Positions 14,773-55,872 of a stretch of 64,000 nucleotides of DNA are shown here, in pieces; the stretch's first letter is position 1, and each line of letters begins with the position of its first letter. The stretch covers positions 868,001 through 932,000 of the forward strand of contig JADLSH010000114.1 in NCBI GenBank assembly GCA_016169945.1. The letters are read 5' to 3'. The notes beneath the pieces are model-generated. The model did no database searches, had not been told where the DNA came from, and worked only from the letters and a program-made list of their open reading frames with translations. Both the position numbers and the translations under genes were made by a program. This stretch comes from Trachythela sp. YZ-2020 (Eukaryota > Cnidaria > Anthozoa > Malacalcyonacea > Clavulariidae).

Positions 14773-14778
14773 CCGCTC
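14773..14778. repeat. left 6-bp target-site duplication (CCGCTC)
   Basis: CCGCTC directly precedes the element terminus AGTAGGTAACC, and the same hexamer directly follows the other terminus at 24,104-24,109. A 6-bp duplication is the known hallmark of Polinton/Maverick integration. Confidence 0.9.
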
Positions 14779-14940
14779 AGTAGGTAACCCTGTACATCTG
14801 GCGGCGGAAGTGAATTGACACTTGGAAGTAAGAATACCGGAAGTGATGTCACACTTGGAAGTAAGAATACTAATGAGATGACGCAACATAAAGCGTTGCG
14901 TAACATAAAGCGTTGCGTAACGTAAAGCGTTGCGTAACGT
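14779..14940. repeat. left terminal inverted repeat of the Polinton-type element
   Basis: It begins AGTAGGTAACCCTGTACATC and matches the reverse complement of 23,942-24,103 over all 162 bases with one mismatch. Its inner part contains three of the GCGTTGCGTAAC cores at 17-bp spacing, and a fourth core follows at 14,944. A CTTGGAAGTAAGAATAC block is repeated twice inside. Confidence 0.92.
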
Positions 14941-14956
14941 AAAGCGTTGCGTAACC
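14893..14956. promoter_or_regulatory. bZIP-type repeat array, left terminus (4 cores)
   Basis: GCGTTGCGTAAC recurs at 14,893, 14,910, 14,927 and 14,944 with 17-bp spacing. The embedded GTTGCGTAAC fits the C/EBP-family consensus RTTGCGYAAY. Confidence 0.75.
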
Positions 14957-15145
14957 TCCAGGGTTGAACTTGGAATCTCTTGTGAAATATCAATATTACA
15001 CATTTACAACGTTTGATCATTTCCAATAATGTATTTAAAAACAAAAAGAACAATACATGGTAAATTTTAATATAGATTAATGGTTTAACTGTTTATAATG
15101 TACAATATTTCAATTCTGCTGAGATGTTTTAAATGTTTATAATGT

Positions 15146-15670
15146 TCAACAATTCTGCTGAGAGTCGGGATAGAAGCTTTTGAAGAACATCGGGATGAAA
15201 GGTTCTTCAACGTTGGATACGTTTGTTGGTTCTTCAGGTGCCCATTGAAAATAATCACACCGAGTTTCGTTGGAACAGCAAAAGAACTTTCGACCTTTGT
15301 TAGGACCTTCCTTTTTCACTTTTTTCATGGAGCTCGGCTGGCCGTGATAACAGTTCGGTTTCTCAATTTGATTCTCGTCAGCCCACATCCAGAGGGAACA
15401 CGGATTTTCACGTTCTGCACAGGTAAAGTAAGGTCTGCCAAAGCTTTCTTTCATCAAATCTTTGACCACGCGAAACTTTGCAGGCTTGTGGTGTTCTTGA
15501 CATATAGGTTGTTTTAAATCGATGGCTCTCCAGGCTGTCAGGGCTTTTTGAAATAGGTAACCATCGTCTTCCGTACAAATGAAACCACAGCTTGGATTTT
15601 GACCACAGAACCAAAACGACCCATTTTTCGTGGTTGAACAAGAAGCAGGTTTTCCATGCAAACATTCCAT
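15146..15670 (-). CDS. triple GRF-type zinc-finger protein
   Basis: The 174-aa product contains three consecutive GRF-like zinc fingers, at about residues 1-50, 54-100 and 108-153. The third is the most typical: CYHGQPSSMKKVKKEGPNKG, then RKFFCC, then CDYFQWAPEE. GRF fingers are known from TOP3A, APE2 and NEIL3, where they bind single-stranded DNA. A role in handling replicating or single-stranded element DNA is inferred. The gene is leftmost in the element and transcribed outward from the divergent repeat-array promoter. A TATA box lies about 53 bp upstream of the start codon. A truncated relative of its third finger lies at the opposite end of the element. Confidence 0.8.
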   Translation of the reverse strand: MECLHGKPASCSTTKNGSFWFCGQNPSCGFICTEDDGYLFQKALTAWRAIDLKQPICQEHHKPAKFRVVKDLMKESFGRPYFTCAERENPCSLWMWADENQIEKPNCYHGQPSSMKKVKKEGPNKGRKFFCCSNETRCDYFQWAPEEPTNVSNVEEPFIPMFFKSFYPDSQQNC

Positions 15671-15722
15671 TTTACTAGCTTAAGTTGCGTCTCTATTGTG
15701 AGAAGTTTGCTTGGTTCTTCCC

Positions 15723-15730
15723 AATTTATA
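15723..15730 (-). promoter_or_regulatory. TATA box of the GRF zinc-finger gene
   Basis: TATAAATT on the minus strand, about 53 bp upstream of the ATG at 15,670. The bZIP-type array starts about 55 bp further upstream, and a CCAAT box (CCAATCA) lies between. Confidence 0.65.
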
Positions 15731-15784
15731 CTCTCAGCTCGTTCATGTTCAGACACGGCCAACCAATCAAAACCGTAACATAAA

Positions 15785-16127
15785 GCGTTGCGTAACGTTT
15801 AAATACTAATAGCGTTGCGTAACGTTTAAATACTAATAGCGTTGCGTAACGTTCAAATACTAATAGCGTTGCGTAACGTTCAAATACTAATAGCGTTGCG
15901 TAACGTTCAAATACTAATAGCGTTGCGTAACGTTCAAATACTAATAGCGTGGCGTAACGTTCAAATACTAATAGCGTTGCGTAACGTTCAAATACTAATA
16001 GCGTTGCGTAACGTTCAAATACTAATAGCGTTGCGTAACGTTCAAATACTAATAGCGTTGCGTAACGTTTAAATACTAATAGCGTTGCGTAACGTGAAGC
16101 GTTGCGTAACATAAAGCGTTGTGTAAC
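15785..16127. promoter_or_regulatory. bidirectional promoter array: 12 x 27-bp plus 2 cores
   Basis: Twelve cores GCGTTGCGTAAC recur at exact 27-bp intervals from 15,785 to 16,082, followed by two more at 16,099 and 16,116. The spacer reads GTTYAAATACTAATA. Two cores carry substitutions (near 15,947 and 16,116). The array sits between two divergent genes, each with its own TATA box. Because 27 is divisible by three it yields long artefactual frames, which are not genes. A clustered bZIP-binding enhancer is inferred; iteron-like origin function is an alternative. Confidence 0.75.
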
Positions 16128-16157
16128 ATTACAAATGTGACGTCACAATGCATAGAG

Positions 16158-16164
16158 TATATAA
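16158..16164 (+). promoter_or_regulatory. TATA box of the DEDDh-like gene
   Basis: TATATAA, 24 bp before the first ATG (16,188). A usual TATA-to-start distance would place the cap site at or just after that ATG, favouring use of the ATG at 16,206. Confidence 0.6.
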
Positions 16165-16187
16165 TAACCTAAGGATTTACGATACAT

Positions 16188-16736
16188 ATGTATCGAACAC
16201 TCAACATGTATTGTCAACCAATTGATGTCGTGGCAGTCATGGACATGGACGGATACACTGTATCGAACAGATTTTTATGTAAGGAGCTGGGTCTAATGAA
16301 GGTCGGAAACGTAGAAGCCAGGTCCTTCTTTTTCGACATCGGTATGAGTTGGGACGACCTCACCCAAAAAGACAGGAAGACCTGCAGCTTTTTTAAAAGA
16401 CATATCCATAAGCTACCGTTTGGAGTGCCGCGGGGCACCAAAGCATTCCCTATTTCGGATTTGGAGGCAATTGTAGAGAGTTTTTACAGGGAAGTAGGCG
16501 TAAACTCAAACTCTACAATTGCCTACAAAGGGGGTCATTTTGAGAGGGATTTGCTGGCAAACCTCAAAATCCCTTCCGTAAATTTGGAATGCTTCGGTTG
16601 TCCCAAAGCCGAAAAACTTTTTGATCAGCTGGTCTGGTTGGAAACATGTGGCAACCACCTCGAAGCCAATGCGTACCATCACTGTGCAAAAGTCGAAGTG
16701 GAAGCATATGCCTTATGGATGCAGGAGAATCTTTAG
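16188..16736 (+). CDS. DEDDh/Maelstrom-like RNase-H-fold protein
   Basis: The product is up to 182 aa; initiation at 16,206 (MYCQPID) is more likely because of the TATA position. An acidic first motif (residues 18-22, MDMDG) is followed by FFFDIGMSW, then YKGGHFERDLL (113-123), and finally a His/Cys cluster with acidic residues (HHCAKVEVEAYALWM, 164-178). This order resembles DnaQ-type DEDDh exonucleases, whose last motif is a histidine followed by an acidic residue. The added cysteines also recall the ECHC pattern of Maelstrom domains. Nuclease function is an inference. The gene is driven divergently from the GRF gene by the shared array. Confidence 0.55.
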   Translation: MYRTLNMYCQPIDVVAVMDMDGYTVSNRFLCKELGLMKVGNVEARSFFFDIGMSWDDLTQKDRKTCSFFKRHIHKLPFGVPRGTKAFPISDLEAIVESFYREVGVNSNSTIAYKGGHFERDLLANLKIPSVNLECFGCPKAEKLFDQLVWLETCGNHLEANAYHHCAKVEVEAYALWMQENL

Positions 16737-16952
16737 AGACAAGATAAAAAAAACAAAAAAAAACAACAAAAAAAACCCGGTTCTTTTAAGAACCACCACA
16801 TTTACAAAAGAATATAGAACGCATTGTTTGATATCCCTAAGCCAACGGTTCAAACCTGTTAACTATCCTGCGCATGCGTACCAAATTTTCTTACGGTAAC
16901 CACTTGCACGTGATACCGCACGTGATAGCAAGGGTTTATTGCATAACATAAA

Positions 16953-17204
16953 GCGTTGCGTAACGTAAAGCGTTGCGTAACGTAAAGCGTTGCGTAACGT
17001 TTAAATACTAATAGCGTTGCGTAACGTTTAAATACTAATAGCGTTGCGTAACGTTTAAATACTAATAGCGTTGCGTAACGTTTAAATACTAATAGCGTTG
17101 CGTAACGTTTAAATACTAATAGCGTTGCGTAACGTTTAAATACTAATAGCGTTGCGTAACGTTTAAATACTAATAGCGTTGCGTGACATAAAGCGTTGCG
17201 TAAC
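16953..17204. promoter_or_regulatory. bZIP-type repeat array upstream of the polymerase-N gene (11 cores)
   Basis: Cores occur at 16,953, 16,970 and 16,987 (17-bp spacing), then at 17,014, 17,041, 17,068, 17,095, 17,122, 17,149 and 17,176 (27-bp spacing), and at 17,193. Spacers match those of the other arrays. The TATA box of the next gene follows 15 bp later. Confidence 0.75.
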
Positions 17205-17218
17205 AACCATACCGAGGA

Positions 17219-17224
17219 TATAAA
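17219..17224 (+). promoter_or_regulatory. TATA box of the polymerase-N gene
   Basis: TATAAA directly downstream of the repeat array. The start codon at 17,404 is distant, but a probable 5' UTR intron at 17,327-17,401 (AAAG|GTATG to TTTGTTTAG) would shorten the mature leader. Confidence 0.6.
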
Positions 17225-17403
17225 TTGAGGACATATATGTTATTAGGTATTGTGTTCACACAGCCTTCGTGGAGAGAACATTACAGGATATATTTAACGT
17301 TTCGTGCTTGCTTTTGACTTTAAAAGGTATGTTGTTTGACAAACTTTGTGTAAACTTTATCGTATGTGAATAGATAAACTTACGCAAAACTTTTTGTTTA
17401 GAT

Positions 17404-19014
17404 ATGGAAGCGAGAATTGCCGTATGCCAAACTATCGCGGAGCTCGCGGCTTTGGAAAACCTGAGTGTTTTGAATGCGATTGAGCAATGCCTAGTGTTTG
17501 AAAAGAAAGTTGAAATTGTCAACCGTTTGCTCGAATGGGGAATGGAAAACGAACAAATGGGTCTTGTAGCGAACCTTACCGATTCGTGGACTCCACAGCA
17601 ACGACAATTGTTTTTGCACGAATGGCAGAACGACGAGCCTCTTTTGGAAATAAACGAGGATTCACAGCTACATGAATTAACTCGTCACTGGTTACCCGAA
17701 GAAAGAGAGCGCTTCTATCGTGATTGGCAAGACGACGAGCCGCTGCTACAGGTTGGCCGAGGGCAGAAGAGGACCCACGATGAAGTAAACGACGGCGCTG
17801 AAACAAGTACGGCTGGCGAGGTTAACGAAAACAACTTTACGGTGACTGATGTGAAGCAAGTTCAAGTCAAAAAGTTCCGAACGACTGGTACGGATTATAC
17901 TATTCAATTTACTGACACGTTTTCTCATCTGGAACTCTCGCAGTACCACAGCCGCCTTCACGAAATATTTCAAAGTTTATTGGATACTGTCACCCAAGAT
18001 ATTCCCATGCACGATCAAGTCCGTTTTGTGTTGGGATCGCCTCAACTGGAGTACCCCATTTCTCTCCCATTCATGCCACGGCAACGACTTACGACCGAAC
18101 GCGTGTTGGCTGAAATTGAGCGTGTGATCCAATCCAATCATGAATTTGGGCTAAACGAAGCTGTTAACGTCAACCTTATTCATGTGGAAATGCCCCATGG
18201 TGGGAAGGGCACGAAACGAAGCGAAATCAATTTGGAGAAGCATTTGGCTAAAAAAGGTTCGATTGTACGCATTCAAAACAAGGATGAATTGTGTCTAGCC
18301 AGAGCCCTCGTTATTGCCAAAGCTAAAATTGATAACGATAGACAGTACAAGAGTATAGTTGACCATCGACGACCACTACAAACACGTTTAGCTCAAGAAC
18401 TACATCAAAATGCTGGCGTCCCCCTCGGTCCCTGCGGAATGAATGAGGTGAAACAGTTTCAAACCTATCTCTCCGACTACCAAATCAACATCGTGTCTAA
18501 AGAGCACCAAAGCAGTCTCCTTTATTCCGGTCCGGAAAAAGAGAAAAGAATATACCTCTATCTGCACGACAACCATTACGACGTGATCACGAGTATGCCC
18601 GGCTTTTTCGCTCGTAGTATGTACTGTCATACTTGCAAGAAAGCATACAGTAATCGGGGAGATCATATATGTCCTGACGCGTGTAAACTGTGCTATTTTC
18701 CAAACTGTCCTATTATCTCCTGGATTCATTGTGATGCATGTAACCGGTATTTCAAGAGTCAAGAGTGTTTTGACAGACATAAACAAGTGGTGGGAAATAC
18801 AAAATCCATCTGTGCACACGTAGTCAAATGCCCAGATTGTAATACGGTCGTGTGTAACGAGACCCGTCAAGTTACTGTAGACATTCCGTACAAGATTACT
18901 CGGAATGTGAAGACCAAAAACATCGAGACCAAACGCATGAAAAAGGACTATCGAATCGTTTATAACAAACGTGTAATTATTGATGATTACAAAACATTAC
19001 CTTATGGATTTTAA
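17404..19014 (+). CDS. orphan N-terminal region of Polinton-type DNA polymerase B
   Basis: The 536-aa protein resembles the region that precedes the exonuclease in Polinton protein-primed PolB proteins: RIQNKDELCLARALVIAKAK, then PLGPCGMNEVKQFQ, IYLYLHDNHYDVITSMPGFF, and a cysteine-rich block at about residues 407-485 with CHTC, CKLC, CDAC and CPDC pairs. The exonuclease and polymerase palm motifs are absent; the frame ends in a basic tail, and opposite-strand genes follow at once. Two related 24-residue blocks at 61-84 and 95-117 share WxxxxRxxFxxxWQxDEPLL. A QKRTHDE stretch near 122-128 could be a nuclear signal. It may be a deletion remnant or a repurposed DNA-binding initiator; intactness favours the latter. 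Confidence 0.65.
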   Translation: MEARIAVCQTIAELAALENLSVLNAIEQCLVFEKKVEIVNRLLEWGMENEQMGLVANLTDSWTPQQRQLFLHEWQNDEPLLEINEDSQLHELTRHWLPEERERFYRDWQDDEPLLQVGRGQKRTHDEVNDGAETSTAGEVNENNFTVTDVKQVQVKKFRTTGTDYTIQFTDTFSHLELSQYHSRLHEIFQSLLDTVTQDIPMHDQVRFVLGSPQLEYPISLPFMPRQRLTTERVLAEIERVIQSNHEFGLNEAVNVNLIHVEMPHGGKGTKRSEINLEKHLAKKGSIVRIQNKDELCLARALVIAKAKIDNDRQYKSIVDHRRPLQTRLAQELHQNAGVPLGPCGMNEVKQFQTYLSDYQINIVSKEHQSSLLYSGPEKEKRIYLYLHDNHYDVITSMPGFFARSMYCHTCKKAYSNRGDHICPDACKLCYFPNCPIISWIHCDACNRYFKSQECFDRHKQVVGNTKSICAHVVKCPDCNTVVCNETRQVTVDIPYKITRNVKTKNIETKRMKKDYRIVYNKRVIIDDYKTLPYGF

Positions 19015-19085
19015 AATTATATTATGACGTTCACGCCATTTTATGGCTATTTATATAATTTAAAAAAGTTGTTCATACAGTTTGA

Positions 19086-19091
19086 AATAAA
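19086..19091 (+). terminator. poly(A) signal AATAAA of the polymerase-N gene
   Basis: AATAAA lies 72 bp after the stop codon and before the convergent small gene. Confidence 0.6.
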
Positions 19092-19111
19092 TGTTACAAA
19101 ATCTAAGCTTG

Positions 19112-19465
19112 TTAGTTTCCAATGTTAAGTTTGTGGTAATGATCCAAATTCACCCCCGTTTCTTCTTCTAGCGCCGCCACTTGCTTTTCGTTTTTTCTAG
19201 CCAAGTCCCACATCATCATTTCCTTAGCGTTCATACGATAGGTAAAGTTCGGTCCCTGGGGGGCTCGGGGTACCGATACACCTGTTAATGTTTCCAATAT
19301 GATTTGCGTCAACATAATGGAGTGCAACGTCGCATTATCGACAAGCGTCGCTGGTATTATATTCTTCTCTATCAAAAGTCGCATCAAATCCAGAGTTGCC
19401 AAATTTCCCTCTTGCGTTATAATTTTATCCGAAAGCCAATGCGTTACAATGTTTCTCCAAACCAT
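19112..19465 (-). CDS. small unrecognised Polinton-element protein (117 aa)
   Basis: The product is mostly helical in character, with LATLDLMRLLIEKN and a MNAKEMMMWDLARKNEKQVA segment. No known motif was recognised. It is supported as a gene by a TATAAAA box about 56 bp upstream of the ATG, like the other element genes, and by fitting exactly between neighbours. By position it could be a minor capsid or core component, but nothing in the sequence proves this. Confidence 0.55.
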   Translation of the reverse strand: MVWRNIVTHWLSDKIITQEGNLATLDLMRLLIEKNIIPATLVDNATLHSIMLTQIILETLTGVSVPRAPQGPNFTYRMNAKEMMMWDLARKNEKQVAALEEETGVNLDHYHKLNIGN

Positions 19466-19520
19466 GTTGCTTCTTTAAAATGTTTGTTTGATCTGATGAA
19501 AATCAGGAGCGGTGCAGGGA

Positions 19521-19527
19521 TTTTATA
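19521..19527 (-). promoter_or_regulatory. TATA box of the 117-aa gene
   Basis: TATAAAA on the minus strand, about 56 bp upstream of the ATG at 19,465. Confidence 0.55.
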
Positions 19528-19537
19528 GATTTTCTGC

Positions 19538-19810
19538 TTATGGAGTGACTTTCATTTCGTCAAGAAACTTTCCCATGATATCATAATCTTCAGAAATATA
19601 TCCATGCTTGACACATGCATACCAAACCTTTTCAATAAACTCTTCATTAGTATATACATATCTATCTTCGTCGTCATCATAAACGGCAACCCCTTTCTCA
19701 AACTCTTCATCTGTCAAATCGTTTAAGATTTTATTTTCAAAACTAGAAGCACACATATTGACACTAAGCACAAGTTGATTCTTAGCCATGAACAGTATGT
19801 CGATAGTCAT
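19538..19810 (-). CDS. small acidic unrecognised protein
   Basis: The open frame extends to 19,957, but that would overlap the capsid gene start, so I favour the ATG at 19,810 (MTIDILFMAKNQ) or 19,789 (MAKNQ). The product of 84-91 aa is acidic (DEEFEKGVAVYDDDEDRYVY) with a helical C-terminus. No family was recognised. It is divergent from the capsid gene, with about 110 bp between the two starts that would hold both promoters. Confidence that it is expressed is moderate. Confidence 0.45.
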   Translation of the reverse strand: MTIDILFMAKNQLVLSVNMCASSFENKILNDLTDEEFEKGVAVYDDDEDRYVYTNEEFIEKVWYACVKHGYISEDYDIMGKFLDEMKVTP

Positions 19811-19920
19811 GTTGTGTGCTAGAAGCGAAAAACAGTTAAAAAGAGAAAGGCATCGACATCTATTACCATAAGCAGTCAGACCAAGAAGCGGAAAACAGCT
19901 CCTGACATATTCGGATAAAC

Positions 19921-21249
19921 ATGTATCTCGTACATTCCAAGTCACAAGAATGCACAAAGACAGAACTCGATCTGTTCTCTATACCTCCAACACAAGTCAG
20001 TTTGGAAAAAGGACATTGGATAGATCATCAACCTGTTTCCAGTGTATCAGACGGTGGTCCAATCACGTTCCTGTCTCCAGGCACTGAAGATTATGTCGAT
20101 TTATCAAAAACGATTCTTGTGGTGAGAGCAAAAGTGACTAAAGCAGACGGTGCAAATCTTGACGCAGACGAAAAGGTCGGAGTTGTGAACAATTTCCTAC
20201 ACAGTCTGTTCAAACAAGTCGACGTGTTTTTGAAAGAAAAGCAAGTGACACAAGCCACTGGAACTTACGCGTACCGTGCATATCTGGAAACCCTCCTCAA
20301 TTATAATCCGTCAGCGAAAGAGTCACAAATTACCAGCTCTATGTTTTATAAAGACACGGGAGGGAAAATGGACGTTGCCGATCCTACACTGGCAGGTGCC
20401 AACGCCAACCTTGGTCTTAAAGCAAGATATGAATTCAGCAAGACAAGTGGAACTATTGAAATGACCGGACCTATATTCAGCGACGTATTTTTCACCGAAC
20501 GTCTCCTGCTAAGTTTTGTTGACTTGAAAGTTATTCTGAATCGAAGTAGCAAAGAGTTTTGTCTGATGGCGTCTGAGGACGATGTTGATTACAGAGTAAA
20601 GCTAATCGATGCCTATCTCAAGATACGTAAGGTGAAAGTTAGTCCAAGCATTTCCGTGGCTCATGAAATTGCATTGAAAAAAGGACCGGCTATCTATCCT
20701 GTTCGTCGCGTGGAGTGCAAGAGTTTCATTGTTCCCGCAGGAAATCCCTCCCTGAGGAAAGATAACATCTTTAATGGACTTGTACCGAAATCGTTTGTCT
20801 TTGGATTGGTCGATAGCGCAGCGTTTAATGGCGCATACAAGAAGAATCCGTACAACTTTCAACATTTTAACGTGTCCTCTATTGGAATAACCGTGAATGG
20901 AGAAGATATGCCGTTTAAACCGATGCAGCTTTCCTTTGGTGCAAACCCCAGATTTGTTGAAGCATTCAGTACATTGTTTTCTGGTACGGGAAAAATGTAT
21001 TACAACACAGGGAACGATATAACACGAGAAGAGTTTCCAAAAGGATATGCAGTTTATGCTTTCGATCTGACTCCAGATATGTGTGGATCCTCACCTCATT
21101 TTAATGCTGTTCAAAGAGGAAATCTAGCAGTTGACATCAAGTTCTCTGCCGCACCGGCAGCAGCTGTGAGTCTCGTCTGTTACGGGGAATTTGAAAACCT
21201 GATTCAAATTGATGCTGAGAGAAACGTCGTTTACGATTACTCTGGCTAA
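19921..21249 (+). CDS. putative major capsid protein (F54H12.2-like, double jelly-roll type)
   Basis: The 442-aa product begins with the signature of the F54H12.2-like family (ELDLFSIPPTQVSLEKGHW), continues through beta-rich segments and ends with SLVCYGEFENLIQIDAERN. From family knowledge, Polinton capsid proteins of this kind are predicted double jelly-roll fold proteins that form the icosahedral shell. The length fits the family and the frame is intact. The protease gene starts immediately after its TAA, so the two are probably made from one transcript. This is the strongest sign that the element can encode virion-like particles. The fold itself has not been modelled here. Confidence 0.75.
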   Translation: MYLVHSKSQECTKTELDLFSIPPTQVSLEKGHWIDHQPVSSVSDGGPITFLSPGTEDYVDLSKTILVVRAKVTKADGANLDADEKVGVVNNFLHSLFKQVDVFLKEKQVTQATGTYAYRAYLETLLNYNPSAKESQITSSMFYKDTGGKMDVADPTLAGANANLGLKARYEFSKTSGTIEMTGPIFSDVFFTERLLLSFVDLKVILNRSSKEFCLMASEDDVDYRVKLIDAYLKIRKVKVSPSISVAHEIALKKGPAIYPVRRVECKSFIVPAGNPSLRKDNIFNGLVPKSFVFGLVDSAAFNGAYKKNPYNFQHFNVSSIGITVNGEDMPFKPMQLSFGANPRFVEAFSTLFSGTGKMYYNTGNDITREEFPKGYAVYAFDLTPDMCGSSPHFNAVQRGNLAVDIKFSAAPAAAVSLVCYGEFENLIQIDAERNVVYDYSG

Positions 21250-21756
21250 ATGAATACATTACAGATAACTCGTGCACTGGAACAAGATCCTATAACAAGC
21301 AAGAGGTTTTGCGGCGTGTTTCCTAGTGATAAGCTACCTCAGACGATCGATAAATATCCGTGTGGATTTATCGCGAACACTGATCCTAGCACAGAACCAG
21401 GAACGCATTGGGTGGCCTTTTACTTTCCATCAGAAGAGAAAGGAGAATTCTTCGACAGTTATGGGCAACCACCAGATTACTACAGGAATTCGTTTGGAGA
21501 CTTTTTAGAGTCTCATGAATGGGAATTTAACACTCGTAAACTGCAAAGTGTTTGGTCAGATGTGTGTGGACAGTATTGCATATTTTACCTTAGCCATAGA
21601 GCACGAGAACAAAGCATGAATAAAATCGTACATTTATTTAATAACGATACTATGTTAAATGACGCAAAAGTGTCTCAGTTTGTTAAAACTCATTATAAAG
21701 TTATGTTAAAACAGCCCTATGTTGGCCTTAATCAGTTTAGTAAAAAAATTATTTGA
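21250..21756 (+). CDS. adenovirus-type maturation cysteine protease
   Basis: The 168-aa protein has the adenain (peptidase C5) pattern: His53 in GTHWVAFYF, Asp69 in EFFDSYGQPP, Gln99 and Cys106 in LQSVWSDVCGQYC. The Gln-to-Cys spacing of seven equals that of adenain. The known role of the family is to cleave capsid and core precursors during virion maturation. The ATG follows the capsid stop with no gap (TAA then ATG), implying reinitiation or a shared message. A poly(A) signal follows the stop. All catalytic residues are present and the gene looks functional. Confidence 0.88.
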   Translation: MNTLQITRALEQDPITSKRFCGVFPSDKLPQTIDKYPCGFIANTDPSTEPGTHWVAFYFPSEEKGEFFDSYGQPPDYYRNSFGDFLESHEWEFNTRKLQSVWSDVCGQYCIFYLSHRAREQSMNKIVHLFNNDTMLNDAKVSQFVKTHYKVMLKQPYVGLNQFSKKII

Positions 21757-21769
21757 AAAATAATGTTAT

Positions 21770-21775
21770 AATAAA
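21770..21775 (+). terminator. poly(A) signal AATAAA of the capsid-protease unit
   Basis: AATAAA 14 bp after the protease stop, facing the convergent signal at 21,897-21,902. Confidence 0.65.
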
Positions 21776-21896
21776 TGTTAAAAATTCAATGTATGTGTGT
21801 TTTGATTTCTAGTCCCACAATGCCTTTAGCGCTTTAAAAAACAAAAATGACAAGTAAGAAGAGTCTTATTACCGTGCCAAAAATGACAGGAAAACA

Positions 21897-21902
21897 TTTA
21901 TT
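21897..21902 (-). terminator. poly(A) signal of the minus-strand ATPase unit
   Basis: AATAAA on the minus strand, 25 bp after the stop of the 193-aa gene. Confidence 0.6.
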
Positions 21903-21926
21903 AACTTCACAACAATTACATATTGT

Positions 21927-22508
21927 TTATTTATATCTAAGCCATTCTTTTTGAGGTTGTTTTGATGTACTTCCATGTCTCTCTACAAGGGTTTGGAAAT
22001 AATTCGACGAGCTCGCACGTCGTGGGCTATGAAGGATCTCCTCATCCTCTGCAGACGATGTACCGAATTGCTTCCATCTTTCCTCATTTCTCACGATATC
22101 TTTAGGTATATTCATCTTTGATAAAGCACGAAAAAACTCCTTGGAGCCCGTAGGATTAAAATTTTTTCTTGCCCTCATGGCATCGCTGATCAAGTCAGAT
22201 ATGTTTGACTGGGGGATCTTTTTACCGTCAAAATCGACTTGTCCTGATTCGTCCCAAGAAATAACGTCGGGTCTTGCTTTCAATCGGTTTAAAAGTGCTG
22301 TAGCTCTTGAACGCATTGTTTTAGGTATGTGTTCGACAACGTCCGCGTCAGATAAACGTGCTCTCTCTCCAGGCAAAATCAGTGAACACTCGCAAATAGC
22401 CGTAATGACATCCGCGGGACAATGTTCAATAAGCAGTTTCCGCAGTTTAGGTTTACATTTCGTCATAACCTGAAGATAGGGAAGGCTCTCTTTCATGTGC
22501 TTCGACAT
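21927..22508 (-). CDS. conserved Polinton-associated protein, function unknown
   Basis: The 193-aa protein has two parts. An N-terminal helical segment (LPYLQVMTKCKPKLRKLLIE, then HCPADVITAICECSL) is of a kind I recognise from proteins associated with metazoan Polintons. A second part contains ISWDESGQVDFDGKKIPQSN and FNPTGSKEFFRALSKMNIP. No enzymatic motif is visible. A structural or DNA-packaging role is inferred from its place beside the ATPase gene. Its ATG lies only 34 bp after the ATPase stop with no TATA box between, so it is probably on the ATPase transcript. Confidence 0.6.
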   Translation of the reverse strand: MSKHMKESLPYLQVMTKCKPKLRKLLIEHCPADVITAICECSLILPGERARLSDADVVEHIPKTMRSRATALLNRLKARPDVISWDESGQVDFDGKKIPQSNISDLISDAMRARKNFNPTGSKEFFRALSKMNIPKDIVRNEERWKQFGTSSAEDEEILHSPRRASSSNYFQTLVERHGSTSKQPQKEWLRYK

Positions 22509-22542
22509 GATGGAAATGATGACTTTAAGCGACGCACGTAGC

Positions 22543-23187
22543 TTAAGTACGCTTCACGTAGACAATATGTCTTTCCTCGGGCAGAATGTTGGTTCTCAAG
22601 CGCATGTTTTCTGGTGTCAGCTGATGACAGTCAATCATTAAATATCCATATGGTTTACTTGTAGCATCACGAAACGATTCCAAAAGGTAGTTGGTGTGTT
22701 TAGGAAACATTTGTTTGGCAAGTGTTGAAATACCAAGCGAGTCGCGGGGATTTCGGAATATCAACATGTAATGGGAATTCAGACTGATCGTTCGTGACAA
22801 TTTACCGGGTGGAAATAGGTTTTGCGTAAGGTACAACACAGATATGCCTCGATGATGGGAACCGCGGGTAAATAGATCTGACGCACGTTGATCATTGGAA
22901 CACTGGGTCATTAAATAATCCAGTACGACTAGAGAGTTATCATGTCCATCCGCCAAATCGTATAAATCGCTCGGAAAACCTTCCACCAATTCAACGTTCG
23001 ATAACTCATCAAATTCTTTTTGATACTCTCCATAACAGTAAATTACTTTGGTCGGAACAGGATAAAACAGTTCTTTCATATGATGTAGCATAGAACGAAC
23101 CAAATACGATTTCCCACTCTGGCTTTGTCCACAAATATAAAAATTTGCAGGTGTTTTAAATCTCACATCCATCGTGTCCACAAGCAA
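22543..23187 (-). CDS. FtsK/HerA-type genome-packaging ATPase (A32-like)
   Basis: The 214-aa protein has a Walker A loop GQSQSGKS (residues 20-27), a Walker B strand SLVVLDYLM (85-93) and a downstream SVLYLTQNLFPPG segment typical of the Polinton and A32-like packaging ATPases. Such enzymes pump DNA into preformed shells. One feature is odd: the position after the Walker B aspartate, normally a second acidic residue, is Tyr91, which a single base change in an Asp codon would give. The enzyme may be impaired. A TATAAAG box lies about 36-42 bp upstream of the first ATG; Met6 is an alternative start. Confidence 0.82.
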   Translation of the reverse strand: MLVDTMDVRFKTPANFYICGQSQSGKSYLVRSMLHHMKELFYPVPTKVIYCYGEYQKEFDELSNVELVEGFPSDLYDLADGHDNSLVVLDYLMTQCSNDQRASDLFTRGSHHRGISVLYLTQNLFPPGKLSRTISLNSHYMLIFRNPRDSLGISTLAKQMFPKHTNYLLESFRDATSKPYGYLMIDCHQLTPENMRLRTNILPEERHIVYVKRT

Positions 23188-23201
23188 ACAACATAATAAG
23201 T

Positions 23202-23207
23202 TTTATT
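23202..23207 (-). terminator. poly(A) signal of the Bcl-2-like gene
   Basis: AATAAA on the minus strand, 50 bp after the stop codon at 23,257. Confidence 0.55.
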
Positions 23208-23222
23208 TCATAGGCCCCTGTA

Positions 23223-23229
23223 CTTTATA
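23223..23229 (-). promoter_or_regulatory. TATA box of the ATPase gene
   Basis: TATAAAG on the minus strand upstream of the ATPase ATG at 23,187, overlapping the end region of the preceding gene. Confidence 0.55.
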
Positions 23230-23256
23230 GCGAAAATATGCGTTTAGCGAAAGAAA

Positions 23257-23586
23257 TCATTTTGCGGAAAAACTTTCTTCGATCTTGAACTTTGTGAAAT
23301 CAATGGTTTTTAAAACTGTTGCAACTAGTCGTACAGCTCTACGCGTAACGTGTTCGGAGCAAGAGTCATTCATCACATAAACCATTGTTAGGTAAGCTAT
23401 GGCACGACCAAAATTGATAACATTCGTTTCGTGAAAAAGCGTAGTTAGATCACAGGAATAAACACGCGTTGCCATTTGTTCATACAGTGTTTTGTGATGT
23501 TCAAGACAAATATTTATATGATGCGATAACGTTTTCATGTCAATGTCAACGTTATTTTTCTGAAGCTCATCCAAAATCACTTCCAT
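23257..23586 (-). CDS. short Bcl-2/BH1-like protein (putative)
   Basis: The 109-aa product contains LFHETNVINFGRAIAYL (about residues 50-66), which resembles the BH1 motif of Bcl-2 proteins (a phenylalanine, a short turn, then N-W-G-R and a hydrophobic helix). Helices flank it on both sides. No BH2 tryptophan motif or membrane anchor is visible, and the protein is shorter than typical Bcl-2 members. Apoptosis inhibitors of this fold are common in DNA viruses, so a cell-death role is plausible but unproven. The gene has its own TATA box 50 bp upstream. Confidence 0.45.
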   Translation of the reverse strand: MEVILDELQKNNVDIDMKTLSHHINICLEHHKTLYEQMATRVYSCDLTTLFHETNVINFGRAIAYLTMVYVMNDSCSEHVTRRAVRLVATVLKTIDFTKFKIEESFSAK

Positions 23587-23635
23587 TGCAAACCAACACC
23601 AACAACAAATGAAGAGATAACGTCGAAAACGTATT

Positions 23636-23643
23636 TATTTATA
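23636..23643 (-). promoter_or_regulatory. TATA box of the Bcl-2-like gene
   Basis: TATAAATA on the minus strand, about 50 bp upstream of the ATG at 23,586. Confidence 0.55.
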
Positions 23644-23738
23644 ACCATAAAATACAAACATTTGCTAATCTAGACAGAATAATGTTCTGAAGTTAATTAA
23701 CGTTCTAATTAATGTTCATGTTCTGAAAACTATACGTG

Positions 23739-23923
23739 TTAAATCATCAAAGCAATTTTTTTAAGTAGTTCTCTTCTTCTCGGCCTTGTACTGGTCCAGG
23801 CATAGTGAAGTTTACAGGCTGCAGCAAACCTTCTTCTTCGGGAGCCCATTCAAAATATCGACACGAGTTTTCCTTGTCGTTAGGACAACAGAAAAACATA
23901 CGATCCTTGTTGACACCTTTTTT
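23739..23923 (-). pseudogene. truncated GRF zinc-finger gene (C-terminal piece)
   Basis: Read leftwards the frame gives KKGVNKDRMFFCCPNDKENS, then CRYFEWAPEEEG and a tail, with a stop at 23,741-23,739. It is clearly related to the third finger of the gene at 15,146-15,670 but is not identical. It lacks a start and abuts the repeat array of the right terminus. Recombination between arrays probably removed the 5' part of a second GRF gene, so the element may once have had a GRF gene at each end. Confidence 0.7.
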
Positions 23924-23941
23924 GACGCTATTAGTATTTAA

Positions 23942-24103
23942 ACGTTACGCAACGCTTTACGTTACGCAACGCTTTATGTTACGCAACGCTTTATGTTGCG
24001 TCATCTCATTAGTATTCTTACATCCAAGTGTGACATCACTTCCGGTATTCTTACTTCCAAGTGTCAATTCACTTCCGCCGCCAGATGTACAGGGTTACCT
24101 ACT
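23942..24103. repeat. right terminal inverted repeat of the Polinton-type element
   Basis: Inverted copy of 14,779-14,940 with one mismatch, ending in GGTTACCTACT. It carries three GTTACGCAACGC cores (23,944, 23,961 and 23,978) in inverted orientation. Confidence 0.92.
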
Positions 24104-24109
24104 CCGCTC
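24104..24109. repeat. right 6-bp target-site duplication (CCGCTC)
   Basis: Identical to 14,773-14,778. Confidence 0.9.
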
Positions 24110-45790: not shown

Positions 45791-47337
45791 CAATCTTGGG
45801 TAGAGTTGTATTACTATACTACAAGTTTGTTTAACAGTAATGTGATAAAATGTGTATTTTTTAAATAAAATTTACTTTCCTAATTGGTAGGTTGTGTCCT
45901 CCTTTTGTTCCTTCTTTGTTGAGCTATTAATTTATCGCGCCTTCTCGCTTGATGCCTGCGGTCGCTACTGAATACATAATGGCGTTAAAAGGCTAACGAT
46001 TCTCAGCCCCGACCCGTCGAGACAAACATTTCAACTCGTGAATTCTCCCCCTTAAATTGCTTTATTCTCCAAGGAAATTCGCCATCATGTAGAACAAACA
46101 CTGATCTTTCATATATAACAATACTTTAACATTTTGTGCAATTTTGGAACCAATATTTTATCAATAGAAATGGGACCCCGGTCTATGGGCCAATTGCGGA
46201 ATTGCAAAGCATCATGGTAGTTTAGTTACACGGCAGAATTTTTCAACATGGCGATTGTATTTTTCGAACGAGGGAAGGTGCTAAACACATGGGAATTGAA
46301 AGAAAAGTTTTATCATTTTCACTTCGATTAAAGTTTATATGAAATCTGTACGGCTTGTTTTATATTTCTACTTTGTCTTGGGTTTCTACGAGCGAGTGTG
46401 GTTGAAATATTCAACATCGCGTACAGAGTCACTGAAGCGGGGAAGGAGTTCGATTCGAGGTTGTCAGACACAAATTTTGGAATAGTTCACAATACAAAGG
46501 TGAGTACTGCATTAAATTATTTTCAGGATAAGGAACACGTTGTGACTCATTGCTTGCCTGAAAATTTCGGCGATCGATTTAATTCTAGCGACTTGAGAGT
46601 AAAAAATGTTTGCACACTTGACCGTCCCGAAACAACACATGTTTGATCAAACTTTATTCTCACAAACCAAAACATTGAGGTTGTTTGGCAGGAAAAATAA
46701 AAACAGTTGCTGTTTGAAATACCGAGCTTTCACATTTCAAAGGTTTTCGATGTTACAAAAAATGTTTAAAAGTGCTATTCACTACTGTTCAAGTGTCTTA
46801 CTGGAGTTTTTTAACCACAACATATTTGCTTGTTTCGAGTATATTTTGGAAAGTTTCGAGGCGTTTGGTTTACGGTCTGTTTTGATAAATATGGCAAGTG
46901 ACATGGAAAAAGTGCCTAAAGGTGAAAAGTGCGGGGGAACGACCTGTTGTGTGGCACTTTGTCGAAGCAACAGTGTAAAAAATCCGGAATTATTCTTCCA
47001 TAAATTTCCTCTGGATTCAAGCTTAAATTAAAGGAAATATGGCTAAGTTTATTGGGAATACAAAGAAAACCTTTAAAAGCCACAACGTGTGTTCCTTACA
47101 CTTTCCCGGTGGAAAGAAATCCTTTGGTGCATTGCCAACTGTCCTTAAAATATCATGCAGACAAACTGTAAACAGTACCCAAGGCAGGGAACATATTTTA
47201 GACAATGACACTACTGAAACAACCCAGTCTGAACAACAAACAACTGGCAGCATAGAGGCACAAGCGTCAATCAATGAAAAATTAAAAACTGAACATGCAG
47301 CTTTAAAAAGAAAATATGACGAGTTATCATCTAAATA
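45791..47337. repeat. left arm of a 1.5-kb palindrome
   Basis: Inverted copy of 48,270-50,106 (minus two later changes there). The inner 1.2 kb is nearly identical by eye, including coding frames; the outer 0.3 kb is more diverged. It starts at CAATCTTGGGTAGAGTTG. Confidence 0.88.
46606..47335 (+). pseudogene. THAP-domain gene piece, left palindrome arm
   Basis: This is the inverted twin of the right-arm gene: MASDMEKVPKGEKCGGTTCC with CCVALCRSN and ELFFHKFPLD, then a stop and one-base frame change, then HNVCSLHFPGGKKSFGALP and a helical tail cut at the palindrome junction. It carries the same lesion as its twin. Confidence 0.7.
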
Positions 47338-47338
47338 A

Positions 47339-47830
47339 TGTTGGCTCTGCAGAATCATATAACAAGCAGTTTGGACTTGCACCAAGCCATGGAGCTTCTG
47401 TGTTAATAATTAACCTACACTGAATACATGCAGTCATCAGTTCATCGAAATTCTTTTGCTCCAAATATTTTTCAATGGCAGTCTGCTCATTACTGTTGGC
47501 CCACTGACATGCTTTTGGGGGCTTTGTAACATTACTTGCTGGCAATAGGATTTTGCTAAGTAGTGATGTGGGGAAAACATGTTCTCTTCGTTTCATTACT
47601 GTACCGAAATATGAGGCAGTTAAACGACCTCGTCGTTCATGAAACCAAAGTTTGCTCTGTGACTGACCTCTTGTATTGCATTCAATGTCAACCATTTGTT
47701 CTTTGGTTGTAAAAATAATGTTTTCAGTATGTGGTGTATACTCCAGAGAAGGTAAATGTTTACACACTTCCGCAAAGTTAGGAACAGTAATTTGTTCCAG
47801 TATAGATTCTCTTATTTCAGTATTGTACAT
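47339..47830 (-). pseudogene. YqaJ-type nuclease (5' part) of the ISL2EU-like element
   Basis: The frame contains LWFHERRGRLTASYFGTVMK, the R-x-x-R-x-TAS-x-FG block of YqaJ/lambda-exonuclease-like recombinases, followed by ACQWANSNEQTAIEKYLEQK. It breaks off in TEAPWLGASPNCLL, where the palindrome arm begins; the downstream catalytic residues are lost. The gene lies directly behind the transposase on the same strand. Confidence 0.75.
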
Positions 47831-47884: not shown

Positions 47885-48720
47885 TGGCATAGTTTGTTGT
47901 ATGTAATCACATGATGCCCAAATGGGTAGGGCTCTTAACTTGTGATAGAGAAACTCTAACCAAGTAGCCCAGATACGGGATACGTGTGCTTCTGAAATGC
48001 CAAATCGGTGAGCAATGTCCACCCCCATAAGACCACAACCATAAACAACTCCTGCTCTGGCGACATTGACCTTTTTCGCCCCAGCTTTTTTTCCGATTCT
48101 GCTGAATATTCTACATTGTTACTTGAACCAGCATAAGTTAAGAAATTACATGCCGGTTGCAGAAAGTCAAAGAAAACTTTAAATGTTGCATAATTTTGAA
48201 AACCTGTGTAGAATTTAAAATTTGTGTCACTGGCGAGTACATGCTCTATTGGCAGTACACACTGTTCGTATTTAGATGATAACTCGTCATATTTTCTTTT
48301 TAAAGCTGCATGTTCAGTTTTTAATTTTTCATTGATTGACGCTTGTGCCTCTATGCTGCCAGTTGTTTGTTGTTCAGACTGGGTTGTTTCAGTAGTGTCA
48401 TTGTCTAAAATATGTTCCCTGCCTTGGGTACTGTTTACAGTTTGTCTGCATGATATTTTAAGGACAGTTGGCAATGCACCAAAGGATTTCTTTCCACCGG
48501 GAAAGTGTAAGGAACACACGTTGTGGCTTTTAAAGGTTTTCTTTGTATTCCCAATAAATTTAGCCATATTTCCTTTAATTTAAGCTTGAATCCAGAGGAA
48601 ATTTATGGAAGAATAATTCCGGATTTTTTACACTGTTGCTTCGACAAAGTGCCACACAACAGGTCGTTCCCCCGCACTTTTCACCTTTAGGCACTTTTTC
48701 CATGTCACTTGCCATATTTA
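47885..48720 (-). pseudogene. THAP transposase N-terminal half
   Basis: After the THAP domain (48,720 to about 48,440) the frame at 48,567-47,956 continues through TGFQNYATFKVFFDFLQPAC and SPEQELFMVVVLWGWTL. A changed frame then gives DIAHRFGISEAHVSRIWATW, the helix-turn-helix of DDE_Tnp_4 transposases. No DDE core follows. A stop and one-base frame change splits the THAP domain near 48,570, and a further frame change lies near 47,990. Confidence 0.75.
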
Positions 48721-50106
48721 TCAAAACAGACCGTAAACCAAACGCCTCGAAACTTTCCAAAATATACTCGAAACAAGCAAATATGTTGTGGTTAAAAAAC
48801 TCCAGTAAGACACTTGAACAGCAGTGAATAGCACTTTTAAACATTTTTTGTAACATCGAAAACCTTTGAAATGTGAAAGCTCGGTATTTCAAACAGCAAC
48901 TGTTTTTATTTTTCCTGCCAAACAACCTCAATGTTTTGGTTTGTGAGAATAAAGTTTGATCAAACATGTGTTGTTTCGGGACGGTCAAGTGTGCAAACAT
49001 TTTTGACTCTCAAGTCGCTAGAATTAAATCGATCGCCGAAATTTTCAGGCAAGCAATGAGTCACAACGTGTTCCTTATCCTGAAAATAATTTAATGCAGT
49101 ACTCACCTTTGTATTGTGAACTATTCCAAAATTTGTGTCTGACAACCTCGAATCGAACTCCTTCCCCGCTTCAGTGACTCTGTACGCGATGTTGAATATT
49201 TCAACCACACTCGCTCGTAGAAACCCAAGACAAAGTAGAAATATAAAACAAGCCGTACAGATTTCATATAAACTTTAATCGAAGTGAAAATGATGAAACT
49301 TTTCTTTCAATTCCCATGTGTTTAGCACCTTCCCTCGTTCGAAAAATACAATCGCCATGTTGAAAAATTCTGCCGTGTAACTAAACTACCATGATGCTTT
49401 GCAATTCCGCAATTGGCCCATTGATGCTGCAAAGACCGAAAATTGATTTCGCAGCAGCTTGGCAACCTGGCCTTTTCCACGATTGAGATTTACAGGGAGG
49501 TGCAACGCCAATTTGCAAATACCAAACAGGTATTTTCGGTTACAGCCAGCCAATCACAACCGCGCTTGCGATTGTTTACAATTTTCAAAATCTGATATTC
49601 AAAAAGACTATAAATCAAGATGCTTTCGTCACATTCCCTTATAAATCTCAACGGTAGAGAAGGCCTGGTCGCCAAGTTGCCGCGGTATCAATTTTCGGTC
49701 TTTACAGCATTAATAGAGCGGGGATTCCATTTCCATTGATAAAATATTGGTTCCAAAATTGCACGAAATGTTAATGTATTGTTACATATGAAAGATCAGT
49801 GTTTGTTCTACATGATGGCGAATTTCCTTGGAGAATAAAGCAATTTAAGGGGGAGAATTTACGAGTTGAAATGTTTGTCTCGACGGGTCGGAGCTGAGAA
49901 GTTTCTAACCCTATTATGTATTCAGTAGCGACCGCAGGCATCAAGCGAAAAGTCACGACGAATTAATAGCTCAACAAAGAAGGAATAAAAGCAGAACACA
50001 AGCTATCAATCAGACAAGTAAATTTTATTTGAAAAATACACATTTTATCACATATTTTTACTATTAAAAAACTTATAGTATACTAATACAACTCTACCCA
50101 AGATTG
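48270..50106. repeat. right arm of the palindrome
   Basis: Inverted partner of 45,791-47,337, interrupted by a 290-bp MITE at about 49,421-49,711. Confidence 0.88.
49421..49711. mobile_element. MITE inserted in the right palindrome arm
   Basis: The ends ATGCTGCAAAGACCGAAAAT and, inverted, ATGCTGTAAAGACCGAAAAT begin about 75 bp of imperfect inverted repeat. The left palindrome arm reads straight through the site (46,186-46,196), so it is the empty allele. There is no coding capacity. Confidence 0.75.
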
Positions 50107-53827: not shown

Positions 53828-55872
53828 GAACATTACCCAAGCCATATATTCCAAGCTCTGTTCCCTTGTTTACTGGCAGAGAAGTTGAAGTTGAAGAAAT
53901 TACAAACCTTATCACTGACCAATCAACACGACTGTTAAACATCTGGGGATCTCCTGGATTTGGTAAAACATCCACAGCTATTGGAGTAGCACACCGCCTT
54001 GAGAACCCTGTTTATTTTTTTAAATTGCAGGGTATTACCATAGTAGATGAATTTTTATCCAAAATTTTAAGTATTTTTAAGAGCAATTTAGCAGATCTTA
54101 GTCTAAAACCTATGGACAAACTAGTAAGTATTTTTAGAGAAATTTCTTCTCCAATTTTTCTTATATTTGACAACCTTGATGATCTTCTATCTAGTGAAGG
54201 TAGTTCCGCTAAACTAACACGATTATTGGTAGAATTGTTAGACAGTAATATAAACATCAATATGCTTGTTACAACTAGGGAGCTTTTGGAAAATATGCGC
54301 GATCAAATAAAAGGTTTTCAAGATTTCCGAATTCGACCTCTTCGTCCCGTTTCGTCTGTTAAATTTGTTCGTCAACTTCTCCCTTCATTTTCTGAAAGTG
54401 TTGTTGCAAAGGTGGCTGAAATTTCGTCTCATGTTCCTCTGGCAATGAAATTCGTTGTTTCGTTAGTTGAAAACAACGCTGAGGATATGGCGAATACAAT
54501 ACTTGAGGAATTAAGTCTTTCAGGAAATCTTTTAGAGCAGATAGACAGTCCATACGAGAAAAACATGCAAAGGTTATTCGAGGCTCCTTTTGAGCAGTTG
54601 ACATTAAATCACAAACATGCGCTCATTTCGTTAACCGTGTTTTCATCCGCTAGAATAAGTAGAGATGCTGCCATTGACGTTGTTTCTGAGGAAATGGCAG
54701 CTACAAAAACACTAAAAGCAGTACAAAGCCTTAAAACACTTGTCAAGAAAGCGTTAATTGACGAAGATCCCAATGGAGAATATTACTCTATTCACCCCCT
54801 CATTTTTTCTTTTGTTGTTGATAAAGCAAAAGAAAATTATTTTGAGAATGCTGTCAAATCCTCTAGAATTCGCTTTTGTAGGTATTACTTGATTCTTTTT
54901 GAAAGATTAAACGACGATTTCCTAGCTGGAAAGTCGATAGAGAGTCCCCATATGCAAGACACAATGCAGCATGTAAAGATTGCCATGTATCAATCTATCA
55001 CAAGTAGTTTGGAACATTCCCAAGATATTTTTCGTATCTTATCCAAGTCTGAAATATTCCTTTCTCTTATTCATTTTCCCTTTAGTGCATCACTGAATTT
55101 TCACAAACTATATGATTTATCTATAGAAAAATGCAGAACCCAGCAATGCAATAACTACAATTACTTGAAGTTGTATGTCAGCAAATATTTTGCTTTTTCC
55201 CGCTTTAGTTCGTCTAACTTTTCAGACATACAGGAAGAGATATGTAAAGACGTCATGTTGTTGTCGGATGGTAGTGCGGCAAAACTAGGTTGTTATCAAG
55301 GAATTTCACTTATTTCCAAAGGAAATATGAAGTCAGGTATTGAATGTATTGAAAAACATCTTGACGGATTACGAAAATGCGCTGATCAACAGCTTGTAAA
55401 ATGCTTATGTCTGCAGCTTCTTGCACTTCTTTACACTGATTTGAAAGAGTACAGCAAATCGGCAAACTTCAGTAGAGAGGCTATCGAGGTTTGTAAAGAA
55501 ATTGGTAATTACAATCTCTTTTTAATCGATGATTGTGCGCAAACTTTGTCTTTGACGCACAAGGAATACAAAGGCGAGCAAATAATGTTGTTTCTCCATC
55601 TTCTATATTTGTGGTCAAAAGAAATTTTAAGTGATAATACTAAACTGTACCTCTTTAATGCTGTCCATAAATTACAGCAACAGCTAGAGAGTAACCCATT
55701 TGGTTCAGATTATCTATTTCAAATAGTCTGTTACGGTGATTGTCTTTTAGCTTTTCTTGGTTTGAGTGCAGGACAAGAAGCTCTTTTGAGTGAAAAGATC
55801 GAGTTTCTTAACAAATCAGTGAAGCCTGATGATTGTTGTTCCTTGACAGATAGAGAGCATTTCCTAGTATAG
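53828..55872 (+). CDS. NLR-like gene, exon 2: NB-ARC ATPase and first TPRs
   Basis: The domain starts right after the splice (LFTGREVEVEEI). Visible motifs are Walker A GSPGFGKTS, Walker B FLIFDNLDD, a sensor NMLVTTREL, a GLPL-equivalent HVPLAM and a YYSIHPLI segment in the place of the MHD region. About 340 residues of helical repeats follow, with TPR-like pieces such as YSKSANFSREAIEVCKEIG. NB-ARC proteins are nucleotide-switched oligomerising sensors. The frame ends at a TAG caused by a one-base frameshift near 55,862; coding continues in the next frame. The plant-like NB-ARC, rather than NACHT, is known in cnidarian sensor families. Confidence 0.82.

What the first reader, a model, noticed from the sequence alone, without database searches (positions are those of the whole stretch)
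14779..24103. Capsid-encoding Polinton-type element without polymerase core or integrase
Seen: 162-bp termini with one mismatch, an exact CCGCTC 6-bp duplication, intact capsid-like, protease and ATPase genes, and no PolB catalytic or rve integrase frame in 9.3 kb. Known: autonomous Polintons carry both. Inference: this is a structural-gene-bearing satellite that depends on a full-length relative for replication and integration, the reverse of the usual non-autonomous deletion product.
Basis: partly seen in the sequence, partly recalled or inferred. Interest (0 to 1): 0.9.

Follow-up and report, generated by a model that had tools for sequence, protein, structure and literature searches.

The report
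Gutted Polinton with a polymerase stub
This is a virus-like mobile element, probably from a soft coral, that has lost its polymerase core, integrase and part of its shell genes by internal deletions, so it most likely moved only with help from a complete relative; defective copies of such elements are common, but this one keeps the part thought to prime DNA copying.

Summary
14779-24103 has 162-bp inverted termini with one mismatch, a CCGCTC duplication, open capsid, protease and ATPase-like genes, and no detectable polymerase core or integrase.

The reading is only partly right. This is an internally deleted Polinton/adintovirus-type element whose named relatives are octocoral. The 536-aa ORF is no separate gene: PolB residues 1-483 are fused in frame to the last 53 residues of PolB, and about 800 codons (exonuclease plus polymerase) are gone. 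What stays matches, by model and literature, a terminal-protein domain and an OTU protease with its Cys/His pair. The structural set is not intact: penton is undetected, only 31 codons of the PW/pVI-like gene before the capsid remain, and a GRF zinc-ribbon gene is cut at the right end.

Near-identical termini and full-length capsid and protease suggest a young insertion of an already deleted form, served in trans. That is inference. Copy number and a full-length partner were not tested: all 22 own-genome searches returned 'busy'. Since 96% of vertebrate Maverick copies are defective (literature), a gutted copy is not surprising. The boldest open reading: a satellite that brings its own replication primer but borrows the polymerase.

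The parts
14773..14778 (.). left target-site duplication CCGCTC
14779..14940 (+). left terminal inverted repeat, 162 bp, begins AGTAGG
14885..14955 (+). 17-bp iteron array at the left TIR (GTTGCGTAAC core)
15146..15670 (-). GRF zinc-ribbon protein, 174 aa
   Evidence: PF06839, 1.6e-18
15784..16129 (+). internal iteron array 1 (27-bp and 17-bp units sharing the TIR core)
16188..16736 (+). 182-aa ORF of unknown function
   Evidence: no Pfam or PHROGs family
16939..17204 (+). internal iteron array 2, upstream of the PolB remnant
17404..18852 (+). PolB N-terminal part, residues 1-483: terminal-protein-like domain (about 145-261), OTU-like protease (about 268-401, C297/H391), start of zinc fingers
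   Evidence: domain names from PMC11071308
18853..19014 (+). PolB C-terminal 53 codons plus stop, joined in frame; about 800 codons of exonuclease and polymerase missing at the join
19112..19465 (-). 117-aa ORF, unknown
   Evidence: no family
19538..19807 (-). 89-aa ORF counted from its ATG (139 aa from an upstream TTG), unknown
   Evidence: weak PHROGs matches of unknown function only
19823..19918 (+). 31-codon C-terminal stub of the PW/pVI-like gene, no start codon
19921..21249 (+). [quoted passage not shown]
21250..21756 (+). adenovirus-type cysteine protease, 168 aa
   Evidence: PF00770 9.3e-4, just below the curated cut-off; 41% to the L002 protease, 4e-32
21927..22508 (-). 193-aa ORF, unknown
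   Evidence: no family
22543..23187 (-). packaging-ATPase-like protein, 214 aa
   Evidence: weak matches only: FtsK_SpoIIIE 0.016, AAA_22 0.014, terminase large subunit 0.0046
23257..23586 (-). 109-aa ORF, possibly Bcl-2-like
   Evidence: PF00452 8.8e-4, below the curated cut-off; no Bcl-2 chain among the 3 PDB sequence hits
23834..23923 (-). fragment of a second GRF zinc-ribbon gene, cut off at the right iteron array
   Evidence: 63% to the first, E 2.8e-9
23942..24103 (-). right terminal inverted repeat, ends CCTACT
24104..24109 (.). right target-site duplication CCGCTC

Best explanation
It is an internally deleted, non-autonomous Polinton/adintovirus-type provirus, probably of an octocoral. 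Shown: intact ends and TSD; in-frame loss of the PolB exonuclease and polymerase; no detectable integrase; penton undetected and PW reduced to a stub; a truncated GRF gene at the right end; major capsid protein, protease and ATPase-like ORFs open. Inferred: the deletions arose during replication of a full-length ancestor; the shortened genome kept its TIRs (origins and integrase sites); it was replicated and integrated, making the 6-bp duplication, by PolB and integrase of a full-length relative in the same cell. The kept terminal-protein-like and OTU domains may or may not still act.
For: PolB N- and C-termini joined in one frame: residues 1-483 align with PolBs at 43-70% (44-row A3; of the 120 listed hits one is named, Dendronephthya, and 32 carry DNA_pol_B_2), and residues 484-536 match PolB C-termini at up to 83%. 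PW stub exactly 5' of the capsid, best of 361 stop-delimited segment ends for both query tails. Signs of loss at PolB, at penton/PW and at the right-end GRF, plus integrase from an unknown place, yet TIRs differ at 1 of 162. The parts with an outside yardstick are unbroken: capsid full length against relatives (442 aa), kept PolB parts (536 codons), protease (149 of 152 residues of the L002 protease aligned). In the kept PolB part (145-483) the window departs from 1 of 88 near-invariant columns (1.1%; median row 2.3%; 6 of 43 rows lower) and in the capsid from 1 of 140 (3 of 13 rows lower).
Against: No second copy with this layout was seen. None of the 33 proteins carrying the tail also carries the N-terminal part with the core missing, but only lengths of 295-938 aa were eligible and the window's own genome may not be in that database. 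The order deletion-then-insertion is argued, not shown: no empty site, ortholog or second copy was available. The 2,224 open codons of the 10 ORFs are weak evidence of youth, because ORFs without a known relative were picked for being open. The constraint test cannot separate selection on the remnant from recent descent from an intact PolB; in the OTU part alone 14 of 43 rows are better kept than the window. Where integrase sat in the ancestor is known only from gene models, and two of them disagree (P0247, P0272). A few adintoviruses have no detectable penton (PMC11071296, passage), so penton may never have been there.
Confidence: 0.55

Rival explanations
1. A full-length Polinton inserted here and then lost pieces in place as ordinary decay; it never moved in its deleted form.
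For: Most vertebrate Maverick copies (96%) are defective fossils (PMC8097293, passage). Losses at separate places fit piecemeal decay.
Against: Near-identical TIRs and an unbroken capsid and protease point to a young insertion, in which several large deletions without small lesions would be odd; the PolB deletion also kept frame (a 1 in 3 chance).
Confidence: 0.32
2. An established satellite lineage: many copies share this layout, supply their own terminal-protein primer (the PolB stub) and capsid protein, and parasitise the polymerase, integrase and penton of full-length relatives.
For: TP-like and OTU domains kept in frame with C297/H391 and the Ser244 candidate linking residue; few departures from near-invariant columns; TIRs and iterons intact. 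Genomes with adenovirus-class virion proteins but no recognizable PolB or integrase have been reported (PMC11071296, passage).
Against: No second copy seen; penton and PW losses would also have to be complemented; in-frame fusion could be chance.
Confidence: 0.1
3. Assembly or haplotype-merging artefact that dropped pieces of a full-length copy.
For: A 1,156-nt perfect inverted repeat lies elsewhere in the window, so misassembly in the contig cannot be excluded.
Against: No N in the window; the PolB join is in frame.
Confidence: 0.03

Closest known systems
Polintons/Mavericks (Kapitonov and Jurka, recalled; Krupovic et al. 2014; Barreat and Katzourakis 2021)
   Same: TIRs starting AGT, 6-bp TSD, PolB N-terminus, double jelly-roll capsid, adenovirus-type protease and packaging-ATPase-like genes
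   Different: 9.3 kb instead of 12.7-24.6 kb for intact vertebrate elements; polymerase core, integrase and most of PW missing, penton undetected
Adintoviruses (Starrett et al.)
   Same: PolB with N-terminal OTU-like domain; the two best viral fold matches of the PolB remnant are adintovirus proteins, at low TM-score (0.18 and 0.17)
   Different: Adintoviruses also encode an integrase bearing a chromodomain (PMC11071296, passage), not found here
Genomes with adenovirus-class virion proteins but no recognizable PolB or integrase ('meldviruses', PMC11071296)
   Same: virion genes without PolB catalysis or integrase
   Different: The example in that paper's figure 7 legend pairs them with a primase-helicase and a tyrosine recombinase; here no other replicase was recognised and a PolB stub is left
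Defective-interfering or satellite genomes (general, recalled)
   Same: ends kept, replicase lost, predicted dependence on a relative
   Different: Interference, helper use and copy number untested

Membership tests
Polinton/Maverick | terminal inverted repeats and 6-bp target-site duplication | tested here: met
[quoted passage not shown]
Polinton/Maverick | adenovirus-type protease | tested here: met
   PF00770 just below cut-off; 41% to the L002 protease
Polinton/Maverick | FtsK/HerA packaging ATPase | tested here: inconclusive
   weak family matches only
Polinton/Maverick | protein-primed PolB with catalytic core | tested here: not met
   N- and C-termini present, core absent
Polinton/Maverick | rve integrase | tested here: not met
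   10 ORFs in Pfam, two integrase pieces by tblastn, best E 0.18
Polinton/Maverick | penton (minor capsid protein) | tested here: inconclusive
   tblastn with L001 and L002 penton pieces, best E 0.48; both queries are distant, so a very diverged penton is not excluded
Adintovirus | PolB with N-terminal OTU-like domain | tested here: met
Adintovirus | integrase with chromodomain | tested here: not met
Capsid-bearing satellite lineage | several copies with the same layout plus a full-length helper in one genome | not tested
   own-genome search busy on all 22 tries

The most novel reading that the evidence does not exclude
The in-frame gutting of PolB made a stand-alone, possibly self-cleaving terminal protein: a satellite that brings its own primer (TP domain plus OTU protease), keeps the origins and capsid protein, and borrows polymerase, integrase and penton from a full-length relative. 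This would parallel the separate terminal protein of adenoviruses arising from a Polinton-type fusion.
Probability: 0.08. Interest if true: 0.75.

Novelty: new variant of a known kind. Interest (0 to 1): 0.38.

Why it matters
If the deleted form is mobile, Polintons have non-autonomous partners that still encode capsid protein, and cis and trans needs of protein-primed animal DNA elements could be sorted out from natural deletions. The PolB stub is also a natural separation of the proposed terminal-protein and OTU domains from the polymerase, a system in which the proposed self-cleavage could be tested on isolated protein. If it is a one-off, it is an ordinary defective copy.

Tried and rejected
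Stand-alone novel gene for the 536-aa ORF: rejected, its tail is the PolB C-terminus. Intact virion module: rejected, PW is a stub and penton undetected. Assembly gap: no N.

Led nowhere: five viral-contig scans gave no relative. The genome-contig scan gave two stray loci in bacterial MAGs (L001, L002), themselves broken by frameshifts, used only for gene order and as tblastn queries. PDB sequence searches for the capsid profile and the 109-aa ORF gave no convincing relative. PHROGs was uninformative. In the PDB fold comparison of the PolB remnant the listed rows cover residues 268-405 only, so the terminal-protein assignment rests on strand/helix order and the paper, not on a fold match. No base rate of truncated PolBs was drawn, because full-length PolBs exceed its length limit; only the 120 best of 1,615 hits were listed, and 43 of them were chosen for A3 by coverage. 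A2 holds the window's capsid and 13 rows chosen from the 120 listed of 2,203 capsid hits.

Literature: eight searches, listings only except for the six papers named in the report; two searches were mostly off topic. No listed title describes this layout; one search found no held paper with both 'polinton' and 'octocoral'. PMC12721341 (PolB fusion in dinoflagellate elements) was seen as a listing, not read. Two papers were not held; Kapitonov and Jurka 2006 and Starrett 2021 are recalled or cited through other papers.

Full report
Observation. The termini are real: 162 nt, one mismatch, beginning AGTAGG and ending CCTACT, flanked by exact CCGCTC. There is no assembly gap in the window.

PolB. 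The 536-aa ORF has no Pfam family above cut-off. Residues 1-483 match the N-terminus of PolBs; 32 of the 120 listed hits carry DNA_pol_B_2, and the one named is from Dendronephthya. tblastn of nine of those proteins stops at window 18,849-18,852 in seven and at 18,861 and 18,870 in two (P0021, P0119). A search with residues 484-536 alone, among proteins of 295-938 aa, gave 33 proteins, 31 of them annotated with DNA_pol_B_2; the match reaches the last residue in 31 of 33 (P0247 runs on into an integrase, P0262 has 40 further residues). The ORF is thus PolB with an in-frame internal deletion. Counting along P0002 and P0241, about 808 residues are missing (373 + 435); P0241 is itself incomplete, so this is approximate. 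The motifs FFDFEC, DFTSLYP and DTDS, seen in relatives, are not in the ORF (their assignment to exonuclease and polymerase is recalled).

The structural module is damaged. Two stray Polinton loci in bacterial MAGs, both partly frameshifted, show the order penton, PW/pVI-like, capsid, protease (L002, penton incomplete; L001 with a broken protease; the names penton and PW/pVI are recalled and from order). Vertebrate Mavericks have integrase, minor capsid, PW, major capsid, protease in one module (PMC8097293 section 7). In the window, penton pieces find nothing (best E 0.48), and the only PW match at a meaningful place is weak by E-value (0.15 and 0.41) but lies directly 5' of the capsid. It is the best of 361 stop-delimited segment ends for both query tails, with scores 39 and 43 against next-best 34 and 28. 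It is 31 codons long after a stop, with no start. Against this, a few adintoviruses have no detectable penton (PMC11071296, passage). One octocoral gene model (P0247) runs from the PolB C-terminus into an integrase with a chromodomain, another (P0272) has integrase before PolB; that integrase, penton and PW were lost as one block is therefore only a suggestion.

Right end. A fragment of a second GRF zinc-ribbon gene (63% to the first, E 2.8e-9) stops at the iteron array next to the right TIR, so material was lost there too.

Timing. There are losses at three places or more, but the TIRs differ once in 162, the capsid is full length and the protease aligns along 149 of 152 residues of a distant one. 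The further open ORFs (10 ORFs, 2,224 codons in all) add little, as they were chosen for being open. I argue that the deletions preceded insertion and that the insertion used a relative's enzymes. I give this 0.55, and in-situ loss 0.32. In PMC8097293 96% of vertebrate copies are defective (passage), and Krupovic et al. removed Polinton-like elements under 10 kb as incomplete (PMC4028283, passage), so copies like this one may have been overlooked or rightly ignored.

Iterons. GTTGCGTAAC occurs 29 times in the window, all inside the element, against 0.11 expected, at the TIRs and in two internal arrays upstream of the GRF gene, the 182-aa ORF and PolB. It fits the C/EBP-type bZIP consensus as I recall it; no factor was tested. 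The arrays could be replication, packaging or promoter sites.

Limits. Own-genome copies, helper and selection could not be tested (22 busy replies). Papers: passages only of PMC4028283, PMC11071296, PMC6431247 and PMC10120064; section 7 and passages of PMC8097293; sections 7 and 9 and passages of PMC11071308.

Noticed in passing
14885-14955, 15784-16129, 16939-17204, 23942-23997: 29 copies of GTTGCGTAAC, all inside the element, in 17- and 27-bp tandem units shared by the TIRs and two internal arrays; resembles a bZIP (C/EBP-type) site by recall.
   Followed up: partly
23257-23586: 109-aa ORF with a sub-threshold Bcl-2 match (8.8e-4); anti-apoptotic genes are reported in mammal-associated adintoviruses (PMC11071296, passage).
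   Followed up: partly
46182-47337 and 48269-49424: 1,156-nt perfectly complementary inverted repeat with 931 nt between, nested in weaker inverted pairs; a YqaJ-like ORF at 47327-47830 (PF09588 2.1e-4). Young element or assembly artefact.
   Followed up: partly
53866-57311: ATPase and TPR ORFs of NLR-like type, typical of cnidarian genomes by recall.
   Followed up: no
L001 and L002: Animal-type Polinton capsid genes inside contigs filed under bacterial MAGs (Breoghania; Escarpia endosymbiont), probably host contamination.
   Followed up: partly
window:17404-18852 versus BFVD A0A7D4VFN9: Best viral fold match of the PolB stub is a 560-aa 'C2H2-type' protein of Drosophila-associated adintovirus 2 (E 5.1e-10, TM 0.18); it may be another PolB N-terminus without a core, or a split annotation.
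   Followed up: no
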